From Pseudomonadota bacterium (GTDB taxonomy: Bacteria > SAR324 > XYD2-FULL-50-16 > JAHJRI01), in NCBI GenBank assembly GCA_022360105.1, contig JAKSDL010000433.1:1-7016 (forward strand): 7,016 nt of DNA, written 5' to 3'. Positions 162 through 7,000 of this stretch are shown here, piece by piece. Position numbers and translations under genes: made by a program. A model generated the notes under the pieces. That model ran no database searches. It was not told where the DNA came from and worked only from the letters and a program-made list of their open reading frames with translations. The number at the start of each line of letters is the position of its first letter. The first letter of the stretch is position 1.

Positions 162-262
162 ATAATTATGGGAATGAGTTAATTTAAATCTAATCATAAA
201 TATTTTTGTTTAATTTGGAGGATGGCTAACTTGTTTCCCATCAATTTTATACCTTGCATTTT

Positions 263-337
263 TTAACCACGAAGACACGAAGCACACGAAGTTTTCAACT
301 GTTTTTTTCTCTGTGCTCTCTGTGTCTCTGTGGTTAA
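263..337. repeat. Degenerate inverted repeat, TTAACCAC ends
   Basis: The left arm (263-291) starts TTAACCACGAAGACACGAAG and the right arm (309-337) ends CTCTGTGGTTAA; the reverse complement of the right arm begins TTAACCACAGAGACAC. The outer eight bases pair perfectly and the inner parts pair imperfectly because the short internal units GAAG/CACG are shifted. The spacer of about 17 bases is T-rich. The pattern resembles non-coding palindromic elements scattered between genes in many environmental bacterial genomes. It encodes nothing and could fold as a cruciform or RNA hairpin. Confidence 0.65.
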
Positions 338-370
338 ATTGTCCTTACGTTAATCAAGCCAGTAAATATC

Positions 371-580: not shown

Positions 581-1636
581 ATGAAGTCCTGTTTAAACCT
601 TTATTTTGCGCCCTATAAAACCTGCAATTTAAATTGCAGGTATTGTTATGTGCCCACCTACAATAAAAAAAGCAATGCTGTTCATGATCAACAGGTTCTT
701 GCTGCTTTTAACGACTTGTTAGCTAAAATTGAAAAGGAAGACTATCGCATCGGTTCGTTTTGTTTGCACGGGGCGGAACCAGCCCTTTTGATTCCAAAAT
801 CTGTTGCGGCGATTGCCCATGCTGTAACAAAACATTGGGAGAGAGCAGGAATTAAAAAGCAGGGAATAGCGATTCAGTCGAACGGTACTTTGTTCGATCA
901 TACCTATCTAACCACCTTACAATCCGAGCTGTCATCCGATGCAGAAGTTCGTTTAGGGTTTTCGATCGATCCTCCTAAAGTTGTTCATGATGAATTTCGT
1001 CAAAACAGTTTTGATTTGGTGGAAAGCAACTATCAATTGGCTTTAGAGCTTGGATTTCCTGTTTCTGTTTTGTCTGTTATCACGGGTAAAACGCTGAATC
1101 ACTTGCAGGGATTCAAGGCATGGATCGATTCGCAGCTGGAACGACAGGAAAAAACAGGAAATCCATATCGAGTTAAAATCAAGCTGGCTACCGGGAAATA
1201 TGCCGTAACCGATGAGAAGATGAAAACATTCATCGAATTTCTTATTGCAAATAATTACCAAAAGCTTATCCAGATATTATCTCCCGGCTACTGCCTGCAG
1301 GCGGGGAATGAGTGCGAATGGTATGAGTTTGATGTTGATGGAAATTGCTATGCTTGTAATAAGACCTTCAATGATTCAGGTATCTTTGCCTCATGGCGCC
1401 ATGAATCGCTTGATGTGATTGTTGAAAAACGACGCAGACTTTTCTCAAATGAGCATCAACACAGTGAATGCCGGAGCTGTGAATTTCAATTTCTTTGTAA
1501 CAGTGGATGTCCGACAGATCGACACAAATCCGGTCCGATGACCGGAAAAGCGCACGAGTGCGAGATTATCAAAGCTGTCATGAAAGATCTGGAGCAAAAA
1601 AGAATCCACTTAACTGATTTTTATAACTATAATTAA
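581..1636 (+). CDS. Radical SAM/SPASM protein, anaerobic sulfatase maturase-like; putative peptide or protein maturase
   Basis: This 351-residue enzyme probably binds one radical-SAM [4Fe-4S] cluster and two auxiliary clusters and modifies a protein side chain in the cytoplasm. The SAM motif CX3CX2C is Cys15, Cys19, Cys22. A GGEP-like motif reads HGAEP (63-67), followed by SNGT (100-103) and SIDPP (128-132), all in the usual radical SAM barrel order. The C-terminal SPASM domain has Cys238, 245, 256 and 259, then CX2CX5CX3C (Cys297, 300, 306, 310) with CP and R314, and Cys327. Length and cysteine spacing fit anaerobic sulfatase maturases, but Asn260 follows Cys259 where those enzymes, as I recall, have a catalytic Asp. 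No sulfatase lies in the window. The gene 12 bp downstream, with a Cys/Ser tail, is the likely substrate. The start is supported by GGTGA at 569-573, seven bases upstream. The fold is firm; the substrate is inferred. Confidence 0.93.
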   Translation: MKSCLNLYFAPYKTCNLNCRYCYVPTYNKKSNAVHDQQVLAAFNDLLAKIEKEDYRIGSFCLHGAEPALLIPKSVAAIAHAVTKHWERAGIKKQGIAIQSNGTLFDHTYLTTLQSELSSDAEVRLGFSIDPPKVVHDEFRQNSFDLVESNYQLALELGFPVSVLSVITGKTLNHLQGFKAWIDSQLERQEKTGNPYRVKIKLATGKYAVTDEKMKTFIEFLIANNYQKLIQILSPGYCLQAGNECEWYEFDVDGNCYACNKTFNDSGIFASWRHESLDVIVEKRRRLFSNEHQHSECRSCEFQFLCNSGCPTDRHKSGPMTGKAHECEIIKAVMKDLEQKRIHLTDFYNYN

Positions 1637-1648
1637 CAGGACATCATT

Positions 1649-2764
1649 ATGTATTTTGCGGGGAATCTTGCTATCGATCCGTCTCAAATGACGAAGATTG
1701 AAAGGGTGAAACCAACAAAAATATTTGCCAAGTTTTTAAACGCCATCACCATGGGGCTGAGCTCGGAACAGGTTGAAATGGAGACGTTTACGGCTGTTTC
1801 CATTCTGCAGCAACTGAACATGAGTCTGCGCAGTATCAAGGTCAACAATGTGATCCGGCTGGCTGTAAATGATTATGACTTCTATCTGGACGAGAAAGGA
1901 GTTGATGATGATTTAGAGCAGGCGATGCTGGAAATGGAAGTTAAAATTGATGCCTTTGAATCGGAAACGTTTGAAGGCGTTTATATGGTTTTGGAACATG
2001 AAAAAAATCGGATTAAATACCTGATTGAAATTAGTATTCTTCGCAAACACAAGGTGGGTGAATTCCCTATTCAAATTAAGGTAAACGGCGTTCTGGCAGA
2101 CTACAAAGCCCGACCTGGAGAAAACAGGAAGCAACTGGAAAATCGCATGGGTGATGCGTTTAAAAAGCAGGAAAAATACGATGGTTTGCTGCTGCACACG
2201 GAAAACGAGTTTAATTCCTTTATCGGTGATCTGGAACTGGCGGTTCGAAAATTTATCAAAACCGACGATACTCACCAGGAAACGTCAAAAAGAATGATTC
2301 GGCCGAAAAAGAAAGTTAACAAACCCGATGATTTCGAGGCTAACCGGCATTCCGAACCGATCTACCATGGTTACTACGGTTTCAGCGATTTTATGTTTTA
2401 TTCCCTGCTCTGGTCTTCCATGTGTCACCACAATAATATTTACTGTAATAATTTTACCATGGTGGATGAGGCAGGTCAGGACGTCATGACAGTGGGTGAA
2501 GAGGGATTTAACGCCGGAGATACAAACACTCTGAACGACGAAGCCGATTTTGAAGCGCCGGCAGAAGGGGATGTGGCCTATCACGGTGATAATGAATTTC
2601 AAGAGGAGCTGGAATCTGCCAATCTGTACTCGGAGACCGACAGCAGTGATATGGGAGGAACTGAAGAATCAAGCTGGTTCGGAGGCGATGACAGCGGCGA
2701 TGCATCCGGTTGCAGCTCTTGCAGTTCCTGTAGTTCGTGCAGTAGCTGTGGGGGTTGTAGTTAA
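1649..2764 (+). CDS. Unrecognised 371-residue protein with a (CxxC)-repeat C-terminal tail; candidate substrate of the upstream radical SAM enzyme
   Basis: I do not recognise the family. Residues 1-213 look like a mixed alpha/beta domain without any Cys. A basic patch follows (214-225, KRMIRPKKKVNK). Residues 240-268 are aromatic-, His- and Cys-rich (YYGF, FMFYSLLW, Cys259, His260, His261, Cys266). Residues 272-351 form an acidic Gly/Ser-rich linker with about 25 Asp/Glu. The last 17 residues carry Cys355, 358, 361, 364, 367 and 370, separated by Ser-Ser and finally Gly-Gly. No Lys or Arg occurs after Arg233. There is no signal peptide, and the hydrophobic stretch near 246-256 is too short for a confident membrane span. 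Start: ATG with AGGA at 1638-1641, seven bases upstream. The 12-bp gap to the radical SAM gene indicates one transcript. The layout suggests a modification substrate whose N-terminal domain is retained; a metal-binding tail is the main alternative. Confidence 0.85.
   Translation: MYFAGNLAIDPSQMTKIERVKPTKIFAKFLNAITMGLSSEQVEMETFTAVSILQQLNMSLRSIKVNNVIRLAVNDYDFYLDEKGVDDDLEQAMLEMEVKIDAFESETFEGVYMVLEHEKNRIKYLIEISILRKHKVGEFPIQIKVNGVLADYKARPGENRKQLENRMGDAFKKQEKYDGLLLHTENEFNSFIGDLELAVRKFIKTDDTHQETSKRMIRPKKKVNKPDDFEANRHSEPIYHGYYGFSDFMFYSLLWSSMCHHNNIYCNNFTMVDEAGQDVMTVGEEGFNAGDTNTLNDEADFEAPAEGDVAYHGDNEFQEELESANLYSETDSSDMGGTEESSWFGGDDSGDASGCSSCSSCSSCSSCGGCS
2711..2761 (+). repeat. In-frame nine-base repeat encoding the C-S-S tail
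   Basis: Six Cys codons fall exactly nine bases apart (2711, 2720, 2729, 2738, 2747, 2756), with Ser-Ser between the first five and Gly-Gly before the last. The Ser pairs use different codons each time (AGC TCT, AGT TCC, AGT TCG, AGT AGC) and Cys uses both TGC and TGT, so the DNA units are not identical. That indicates retention of the amino-acid pattern rather than a fresh slippage product. Confidence 0.85.
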
Positions 2765-6825: not shown

Positions 6826-6899
6826 GTCATTCCGGGTTTGACCCGGAATCCAGTCTTTCCGTACATTCCCATGGATGCCGGATCAAGTCCGGCATGACA
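6826..6899. repeat. Composite intergenic inverted repeat (GTCATTCCGG type)
   Basis: The outer arms GTCATTCCGGGTTTGACCCG (from 6826, continuing to about 6853) and its partner at 6872-6899, ending CCGGCATGACA, are imperfect reverse complements. Each arm also contains its own small palindrome (CCGGGTTTGACCCGG; GCCGGATCAAGTCCGGC). This nested-palindrome layout is that of the dispersed non-coding elements found between genes in many proteobacteria and Desulfobacterota. Short open frames across it, such as the one spanning 6714-6920, are by-products of the repeat. Confidence 0.7.
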
Positions 6900-7000
6900 G
6901 GGATTCACAATTTCAATTGAATCGCAAATTAAGCATTGAATGACTTTTAGGAGTAGACTCAGATGTTAAATTTTACATTTTGAGATTTTTTTTGCTTCCC

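What the first reader, a model, noticed from the sequence alone, without database searches (positions are those of the whole stretch)
581..2764. Two-gene radical SAM/SPASM plus Cys-tail protein system, possibly undescribed
The sequence shows a SPASM maturase-type enzyme followed 12 bp later by a 371-residue protein with six Cys in strict three-residue spacing at its C-terminus. Established knowledge: SPASM enzymes next to Cys- or Gly-rich repeat proteins install thioether links (sactipeptides, ranthipeptides) or oxidise Ser/Cys to formylglycine. Inference: this enzyme modifies the C-S-S tail, and the large N-terminal domain serves as a retained carrier or recognition domain in place of the short leader seen in most ribosomal peptides. 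Since the enzyme resembles formylglycine-forming maturases and the tail is entirely Cys, Ser and Gly, either chemistry is conceivable. No protease or exporter is present, so the product may stay attached to the protein.
Basis: partly seen in the sequence, partly recalled or inferred. Interest (0 to 1): 0.85.

Follow-up and report, generated by a model that had tools for sequence, protein, structure and literature searches.

The report
Cysteine-tailed protein with interchangeable partner enzyme
A bacterial protein ending in a string of cysteines is encoded next to a partner gene that probably modifies that tail; across many phyla the partner is either a radical enzyme, as here, or an unrelated small protein, and when the cysteines are lost the partner is gone too.

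Summary
A radical SAM/SPASM enzyme (581-1636) is followed 12 bp later by a 371-aa protein (1649-2764) ending CSSCSSCSSCSSCGGCS. The tail protein belongs to an unnamed family (no significant Pfam, NCBIfam or PDB match) found in many phyla. The reason is informative. In 43 others the partner gene is an unrelated ~145-aa helical protein (Pfam PF27765, motif D-WHEF-IL...C...HH.P...CGxC). Partner and Cys tail go together: 52 of 53 Cys-tailed loci have a partner; 0 of 21 Cys-less loci do. The tree needs 8 changes of the Cys tail; well-supported independent pairs agree in 5-6 of 6, none the other way. Six of 11 distant relatives of the small domain are fused to their own Cys/Gly/Ser tail. So the partner very probably acts on the tail of a retained carrier, and two unrelated proteins can do it. 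The chemistry is unknown. Formylglycine is less likely: the Asp next to the third SPASM cysteine of anaerobic sulfatase maturase is Asn here. The nearest precedent in print is TIGR04222 membrane proteins with MNIO enzymes.

The parts
581..1636 (+). Radical SAM/SPASM enzyme, 351 aa (family modelled as A2)
   Evidence: PF04055 and TIGR04085 above cut-off; nearest solved structure anaerobic sulfatase-maturating enzyme 4k37, profile E 6.9e-25
623..646 (+). CNLNCRYC, the CxxxCxxC motif (Cys15, 19, 22) for the radical SAM cluster
   Evidence: C15, C19, C22 invariant in 30 aligned sequences
1292..1561 (+). SPASM cysteines Cys238, 245, 259, 297, 300, 306, 310, 327 (two auxiliary clusters inferred)
   Evidence: All invariant in A2; in the alignment to anSME Cys245 is offset by one residue from the position of anSME Cys-261
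1358..1360 (+). Asn260, directly after SPASM Cys259; the aligned residue in anSME is Asp
   Evidence: CN by pattern in 79 of 80 homologues P0121-P0200; in P0200 the pattern caught another Cys, and its aligned site is also CN; alignment to anSME
1637..1648 (+). 12-base spacer with a Shine-Dalgarno-like AGGA
1649..2764 (+). Cys-tail carrier protein, 371 aa (family modelled as A1)
   Evidence: No significant family in Pfam, NCBIfam, PADLOC or by sequence in PDB; 238 homologues
1649..2647 (+). Folded carrier part, about residues 1-333
   Evidence: AlphaFold2 on A1: mean pLDDT 87.1, pTM 0.82; the only stretch of 3 or more residues under pLDDT 50 is 334-366
1718..1720 (+). Lys24, the N-terminal residue most tied to the Cys tail
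   Evidence: Lys in 50 of 54 Cys-tailed rows (window included) and 1 of 21 Cys-less rows; weaker in the protein sample P0001-P0120
2711..2761 (+). CSSCSSCSSCSSCGGCS tail, Cys355, 358, 361, 364, 367, 370; predicted disordered
   Evidence: pLDDT under 50 for residues 334-366; conservation

Best explanation
A two-gene protein-modification unit. The 371-aa protein is a retained carrier (no signal or membrane segment evident on reading, so probably cytosolic) with a folded N-terminal part and a flexible acidic/Ser/Gly/Cys C-terminus. The radical SAM/SPASM enzyme acts on the C-terminal cysteines by radical oxidation. In most relatives an unrelated small helical protein (PF27765, with invariant Asp, His, Glu, Cys and His residues that look like a metal site) does the equivalent job. 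Shown here by comparative data: tail and partner form one functional unit, the partner is interchangeable, and the carrier survives without either. Inferred: that the action is covalent modification of Cys. Most likely chemistry, weakly held: an oxidative Cys product (thioether cross-link, or a thiooxazole-type heterocycle as made by both radical SAM SbtM and MNIO iron enzymes), giving a metal-binding or redox tail. Formylglycine is less likely.
For: Partner by tail over 74 loci: partner+Cys 52, partner+no Cys 0, no partner+Cys 1, no partner+no Cys 21. tblastn control: a partner relic around 0 of 21 Cys-less loci (3 kb upstream searched in 8, 2.9 kb in 1, 1.5 kb in 11, 0.6 kb in 1); a partner hit in 52 of 53 Cys-tailed ones. 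Tree: 8 changes of the Cys tail; 6 independent pairs on well-supported branches, 5-6 the same way, 0 the other way, sign-test p 0.031-0.0625. Dedication: the radical SAM family is in 5 of 391 class genomes (E up to 1e-22), each also holding the tail gene next door; close PF27765 members in 3 of 391, the same three genomes in which one search found the pair adjacent; radical SAM family in 6 of 6 rSAM-locus genomes and at family-level scores in 0 of 24 others. One locus, L021, uses a different SPASM enzyme placed 3' of the tail gene. Distant PF27765-like domains carry their own Cys/Gly/Ser tail in 6 of 11 proteins looked at.
Against: No product was seen; co-loss shows a functional link, not covalent modification. 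L016 has a Cys tail without an adjacent partner (a PF27765 gene lies elsewhere in its genome). L053 counts as paired only through a fragment at a contig start. The small partner has no proven enzyme relative and no fold match, so a chaperone or metal-loading role is not excluded. Independent contrasts are few: 6 supported pairs, p only about 0.03-0.06. Lys24 coupling is weaker in the larger protein sample (86 of 101 against 8 of 16). The genome-contig sample rests on one peptide pattern, so divergent carriers are under-sampled.
Confidence: 0.68

Rival explanations
1. The tail is a metal or Fe-S binding site and the partner (either kind) is a loading or assembly factor; no covalent change of Cys occurs.
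For: CxxCxxCxxC spacing could hold Fe-S or other metals; the small partner has invariant D, H, E, C, H, H and a C-terminal CGxC.
Against: A full SPASM radical SAM enzyme with all its cluster cysteines is an odd loading factor; spacing drifts to CGSSC, CGGGC and so on across homologues, unlike a fixed cluster site.
Confidence: 0.2
2. The enzyme converts tail Cys (or Ser) to formylglycine, like anaerobic sulfatase maturases.
For: Best PDB match is anSME (profile E 6.9e-25) and best NCBIfam match is TIGR03942; formylglycine is also made by unrelated aerobic enzymes (recalled), which would parallel the partner swap.
Against: The anSME Asp after the third SPASM Cys is Asn here; TIGR03942 score 77.7 against a cut-off of 349.45; no Pro or Arg in the tail, so no C/S-x-P/A-x-R motif (motif recalled).
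Confidence: 0.08
3. Thiooxazole-type heterocycles on the tail Cys, made by radical SAM here and by the small PF27765 protein elsewhere, for copper or other metal binding.
For: Thiooxazole is the one Cys product in the passages I read that is made both by a SPASM enzyme (SbtM, PMC11002830) and by non-haem iron enzymes (PMC12452194). The alternative SPASM enzyme in L021 scores best to the ACGX and SbtM models (231 and 177 bits, both under cut-off).
Against: The window's own enzyme is nearer to anSME, YhhB, DynA and PapB; the SbtM model is not among its 25 best shown of 49. No evidence for copper. Genomes holding the two partner types do not differ in having a haem-copper oxidase (43 of 44 genomes match, 7 of 8 radical SAM ones), so no oxygen split was found.
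Confidence: 0.2
4. Neighbourhood coincidence: the enzyme acts on something else and the Cys tail is unrelated low complexity.
For: Only 9 of 74 loci have a radical SAM neighbour; two-gene units are easily transferred together.
Against: Repeated joint loss in several lineages and strict pairing.
Confidence: 0.03

Closest known systems
TIGR04222 membrane proteins with MNIO (DUF692) enzymes (PMC12452194, passages seen)
   Same: Large retained protein with a C-terminal Ser/Gly region interspersed with Cys, proposed as a protein substrate of a neighbouring Cys-oxidising metalloenzyme; some members lack Cys, and some lack an MNIO neighbour.
   Different: Different carrier (no TIGR04222 match; no membrane segment evident on reading), different enzymes (radical SAM/SPASM or PF27765), and a stricter tail-partner coupling.
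Anaerobic sulfatase-maturating enzyme (anSME, 4k36-4k39)
   Same: Radical SAM fold, eight SPASM cysteines, acts on a Cys or Ser of a full-size protein.
   Different: Asp to Asn after the third SPASM Cys, far under the family cut-off, no sulfatase in the window and no target motif.
Ranthipeptide and cyclophane maturases (PapB, YhhB, DynA)
   Same: SPASM radical SAM enzymes with detectable similarity (58-64 bits); substrate genes adjacent (recalled).
   Different: Far under the cut-offs; substrate is a 371-aa folded protein, not a short leader-core peptide; no Asp or Glu between the tail Cys.
SbtM and ACGX-type SPASM enzymes (thio/selenooxazole; passages in PMC11002830)
   Same: SPASM enzymes; SbtM acts on Cys-containing peptides; the L021 partner falls near this branch.
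   Different: The window's enzyme does not; substrates are peptides.
Plant GRDPs: DUF1399 plus a C-terminal Gly/Cys repeat GCGXXCXGXCG (PMC8585784, passages seen)
   Same: Domain joined to a Gly/Cys tail, as in the fused bacterial PF27765-like proteins; NCBI names two of the listed PF27765 rows 'glycine-rich domain-containing protein' (P0214, P0228).
   Different: No PF07173 (DUF1399) match found for PF27765-like proteins; a lead, not a shown relationship.

Membership tests
Radical SAM/SPASM enzymes | PF04055 and a SPASM model above cut-off, CxxxCxxC | tested here: met
   PF04055, TIGR04085, motif; Pfam's SPASM model not hit
Anaerobic sulfatase maturase (TIGR03942) | Score above curated cut-off | tested here: not met
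   77.7 against 349.45 bits
Anaerobic sulfatase maturase (TIGR03942) | Eight SPASM cysteines | tested here: met
   Eight invariant Cys; seven align with anSME, the eighth is one residue off; anSME numbering from PMC5491770 passages
Anaerobic sulfatase maturase (TIGR03942) | Asp directly after the third SPASM Cys (Asp277; catalytic role recalled) | tested here: not met
   Asn in all 30 aligned sequences and by pattern in 79 of 80 homologues; alignment
Anaerobic sulfatase maturase (TIGR03942) | Substrate with C/S-x-P/A-x-R motif (recalled) | tested here: not met
   No Pro or Arg in the last 19 residues
PapB-type ranthipeptide maturase | Score above curated cut-off | tested here: not met
   58.4 against 340 bits
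PapB-type ranthipeptide maturase | Cys paired with Asp/Glu acceptor in the core | tested here: not met
   No Asp or Glu within CSSCSSCSSCSSCGGCS; Cys/Asp linkage from the start of the abstract of PMC9413430 (search listing)
TIGR04222 (near_uncomplex) tail proteins | TIGR04222 domain | tested here: not met
   No NCBIfam family for the carrier at E up to 1
TIGR04222 (near_uncomplex) tail proteins | Ser/Gly/Cys low-complexity C-terminus | tested here: met
   description from PMC12452194 passages
GRDP-like PF07173/DUF1399 (for the alternative partner) | PF07173 match | tested here: inconclusive
   No match for 29 members of A3 or in 38 genomes; the genome search rang nowhere, controls included
PF27765 (alternative partner) | Precomputed Pfam domain | tested here: met
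   PF27765.1 on all 120 rows listed of 247 homologues of A3; the model did not appear in the local Pfam scans
Retained-carrier Cys modification | Covalent change of tail Cys in the product | not testable with these tools
   needs mass spectrometry

The most novel reading that the evidence does not exclude
PF27765 (D-WHxF/H-IL-T-Y-C-HH-P) is an unrecognised family of small metal-dependent enzymes that oxidise Cys in Ser/Gly/Cys tails, in trans or fused in cis, and it does the same reaction on the same carrier as a radical SAM/SPASM enzyme: a case of two unrelated chemistries exchanging for one protein modification, perhaps reaching to plant GRDP proteins.
Probability: 0.3. Interest if true: 0.9.

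Novelty: new variant of a known kind. Interest (0 to 1): 0.72.

Why it matters
Cys/Gly/Ser low-complexity tails are usually passed over as disordered ends. Here evolution shows that such a tail needs a dedicated partner and that an uncharacterised small helical protein can stand in for a radical SAM enzyme. This points to an unrecognised maturase family (PF27765) and gives clean substrate-enzyme pairs for biochemistry. It also suggests how to read other Cys/Gly-tailed proteins, including TIGR04222 and perhaps plant GRDPs. The neighbours in some lineages (DUF4178, DUF350, spermine-synthase-like and AdoMet decarboxylase-like proteins, K+ channel; Band_7; rhomboid) hint at envelope stress.

Tried and rejected
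Aerobic/anaerobic split of the two partners: tested with COX1 PF00115; 43 of 44 genomes have a match, including 7 of 8 radical SAM genomes, so the idea found no support.

TIGR04222 in 20 of the genomes: one weak match under cut-off. PF07173 in 38 genomes: nothing rang, controls included. PADLOC: only generic viperin-like radical SAM similarity. Plasmid copies: none by megablast. Papers: no description of this pair found in searches (open-licence library only; listings and passages seen). Goldman 2013 and Lewis 2021 were not held, so the role of anSME Asp277 is recalled.

Lys24 as a hard requirement: rejected, as R, H, Q and N also occur with Cys tails and Lys persists in 8 of 16 Cys-less proteins of the second sample, some of which may be incomplete.

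Rows dropped before the count: of 78 distinct loci, L001 and L069 (gene runs off the contig), L019 (frame ends early, tail not seen), L059 (upstream cut). L001 and L019 have a partner upstream. Deduplication was by the first 200 residues. L133, a distant match below the cut used, was found later and not added.
Full report
What is in the window. Two adjacent plus-strand genes, 581-1636 and 1649-2764, are 12 bases apart. The other genes are ordinary and not part of the pair: DUF427, an OYE/FadH-type flavoprotein, a universal stress protein and a LivF/UrtE-like ABC ATPase. No whole genome is held for the window, no tRNA was found, and no near match exists in the plasmid collection.

The enzyme. 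It scores as Radical_SAM and SPASM (TIGR04085); Pfam's SPASM model was not hit. The alignment of 30 sequences keeps CxxxCxxC and eight SPASM cysteines invariant. A profile of the family finds anaerobic sulfatase-maturating enzyme in the PDB at E 6.9e-25, aligned over most of its length. The residue after the third SPASM cysteine, Asp in that enzyme, is Asn in all 30 aligned sequences and by pattern in 79 of 80 homologues, the 80th being a mis-caught Cys in P0200. The NCBIfam enzyme models nearest to it are far under cut-off: TIGR03942 77.7 of 349.45, YhhB 64.4 of 445, DynA 61.2 of 450, PapB 58.4 of 340.

The carrier. It has no significant family by Pfam, NCBIfam or PDB sequence. AlphaFold2 gives a confident folded part (mean pLDDT 87.1) and a disordered segment 334-366 that holds most of the tail. 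Of 120 homologues listed from 238, 104 have at least two Cys in the last 60 residues.

Neighbours of homologues. A scan of genome contigs, resting on one peptide pattern, gave 60 loci from Bacteroidota, Ignavibacteria, Kapabacteria, Calditrichota, Planctomycetota, Myxococcota, Gemmatimonadota, Latescibacterota, Spirochaetota and others. Directly upstream of the carrier lies the radical SAM family in 8 of 60 and a ~133-150 aa protein family in 37 of 60, never both. That second family (alignment A3) has invariant P65, D70, W73, H74, E75, C87, H96, H97, P99, C142 and G143, with C145 in 90% or more. It carries Pfam PF27765 on all 120 listed of 247 homologues, and 5 of the 120 are fused to an AdoMet decarboxylase domain. 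AlphaFold2 predicts an all-helical fold (pLDDT 92.7) with no match in the PDB.

Partner and tail go together. With further genomes (391 of one class; 82, 52 and 196) I had 112 carrier ORFs, 78 distinct. Four were dropped (see Tried and rejected). Of the remaining 74, 43 have PF27765 and a Cys tail, 8 the radical SAM family and a Cys tail, 1 (L021) another SPASM enzyme immediately downstream and a Cys tail, 1 (L016) a Cys tail with no neighbour partner, and 21 neither Cys nor partner; a partner beside a Cys-less carrier was not seen (Fisher p 1.5e-17, which ignores kinship). L053 is counted with PF27765 because a fragment of it lies at the contig start; L016's genome has a PF27765 gene elsewhere. 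A tblastn control found no trace of either partner around the 21 Cys-less genes (up to 3 kb upstream, 1.5 kb in 11 and 0.6 kb in 1) and found one around 52 of 53 Cys-tailed genes. The last search, 335 genomes of one phylum, gave three matches: two already known and one distant, Cys-less carrier without either partner, L133, which was not added.

Independence. On a maximum-likelihood tree of the carrier domain without the tail (75 rows with the window) the Cys tail changes 8 times; for the Cys-less, partnerless group well-supported branches force at least 6 changes. Of 6 independent pairs on well-supported branches, 5-6 change partner and tail the same way, none the other way (p 0.031-0.0625). 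The window sits in a supported set of 16 rows holding 9 radical SAM/Cys rows and 7 Cys-less, partnerless rows (100/99). Within that set carriers with and without the pair share neighbour genes: the Band_7 cluster lies near L002, L003, L004, L007, L009 and L010 and also near the Cys-less L017, L033 and L035 (Band_7 shown for the L002 member), so this looks like joint loss in place (inference).

Dedication of the partners. In 391 genomes of one class the radical SAM family occurs in 5 (E up to 1e-22), all among the 16 that hold the carrier, and next to it. Close PF27765 members (E under 1e-40) occur in 3 of 391, the same three genomes in which one search found the pair adjacent; five more genomes have distant members. 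Among 30 genomes the radical SAM family is present in all 6 rSAM-locus genomes (E under 1e-129), while the best match in the other 24 is 9.0e-18, a partial one.

Cis versions. Eleven more distant relatives of the small domain were examined (12 distant matches; one had no locus): 6 (L097, L098, L126-L129) are fused to their own C-terminal Cys/Gly/Ser tail, with hydrophobic segments visible in L097 and L098; one more (L096) is followed by a separate protein ending SGCGSDGGCGGCG; 4 show no such tail. So the domain is tied to such tails more than once.

A possible contact site. Lys24 is Lys in 50 of 54 Cys-tailed rows and 1 of 21 Cys-less rows; Asn57 in 93% and 33%. In the protein-database sample the Lys24 link is weaker, 86 of 101 against 8 of 16. 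I treat it as a lead for docking or for a residue that meets the modified tail.

Mechanism. Co-loss and replacement show that tail and partner work together; radical SAM/SPASM enzymes are known as protein and peptide modifiers (PMC5491770, passages), so covalent change of the tail Cys is the simplest reading. Thiooxazole has been reported both for a SPASM enzyme (SbtM; PMC11002830, passages) and for iron enzymes (bufferins; PMC12452194, passages), which makes exchange of enzyme type plausible; the L021 partner is nearest to the ACGX and SbtM models. Thioether links remain equally open. An oxygen-based division between the partners was tested and not found.

Comparison. The nearest described case is TIGR04222 membrane proteins, with Ser/Gly/Cys tails proposed as MNIO substrates (PMC12452194, passages). 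Ours differs in carrier, in enzymes and in the strict coupling. The PSP paper (PMC11237479, passages) describes operons with a 7TM spermine-synthase-like protein, DUF350 and DUF4178; the Tenacibaculum locus L042 has DUF4178, DUF350, a spermine-synthase-domain protein, an AdoMet decarboxylase-like protein and a K+ channel just before the PF27765-carrier pair. I found no description of the pair in print.

Noticed in passing
L021 11153-12217: A SPASM enzyme nearest to TIGR04340 (ACGX system) and TIGR04082 (SbtM) lies 15 bases 3' of a Cys-tail carrier whose genome had no match to the A2 family (E up to 1e-10) or to PF27765 (E up to 1e-5): an independent radical SAM partner.
   Followed up: partly
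P0216, P0219, P0227, P0232, P0235: PF27765 fused to an AdoMet decarboxylase domain (PF02675), 264 aa, linking the small partner to polyamine-type genes.
   Followed up: no
L042 4436-11074: Gene row DUF4178, an unmatched protein that looks like a lipoprotein, DUF350, spermine-synthase-domain protein, AdoMet decarboxylase-like, K+ channel, PF27765, Cys-tail carrier: resembles a described PSP-linked envelope-stress operon.
   Followed up: partly
L126-L129, L097, L098: PF27765-like domain fused to a C-terminal Cys/Gly/Ser tail, an architecture like that reported for plant GRDP proteins.
   Followed up: partly
L008, L011, L018: Cys-less carriers follow a rhomboid-protease-like gene (PF01694 shown for the L011 copy only) and end in an acidic-aromatic tail (FGDFDI, FGDIDF, FGDMDY), also seen in Roseivirga locus L028.
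   Followed up: no
window 262-338: Imperfect inverted repeat with CCACGAAGACACGAAG-like arms in the upstream intergenic region, perhaps a dispersed intergenic repeat.
   Followed up: no
window 6826-6900: Sequence TTCCGGGTTTGACCCGGAATCC...GCCGGATCAAGTCCGGCATGAC looks like a dispersed palindromic element (impression from reading the sequence, not tested).
   Followed up: no
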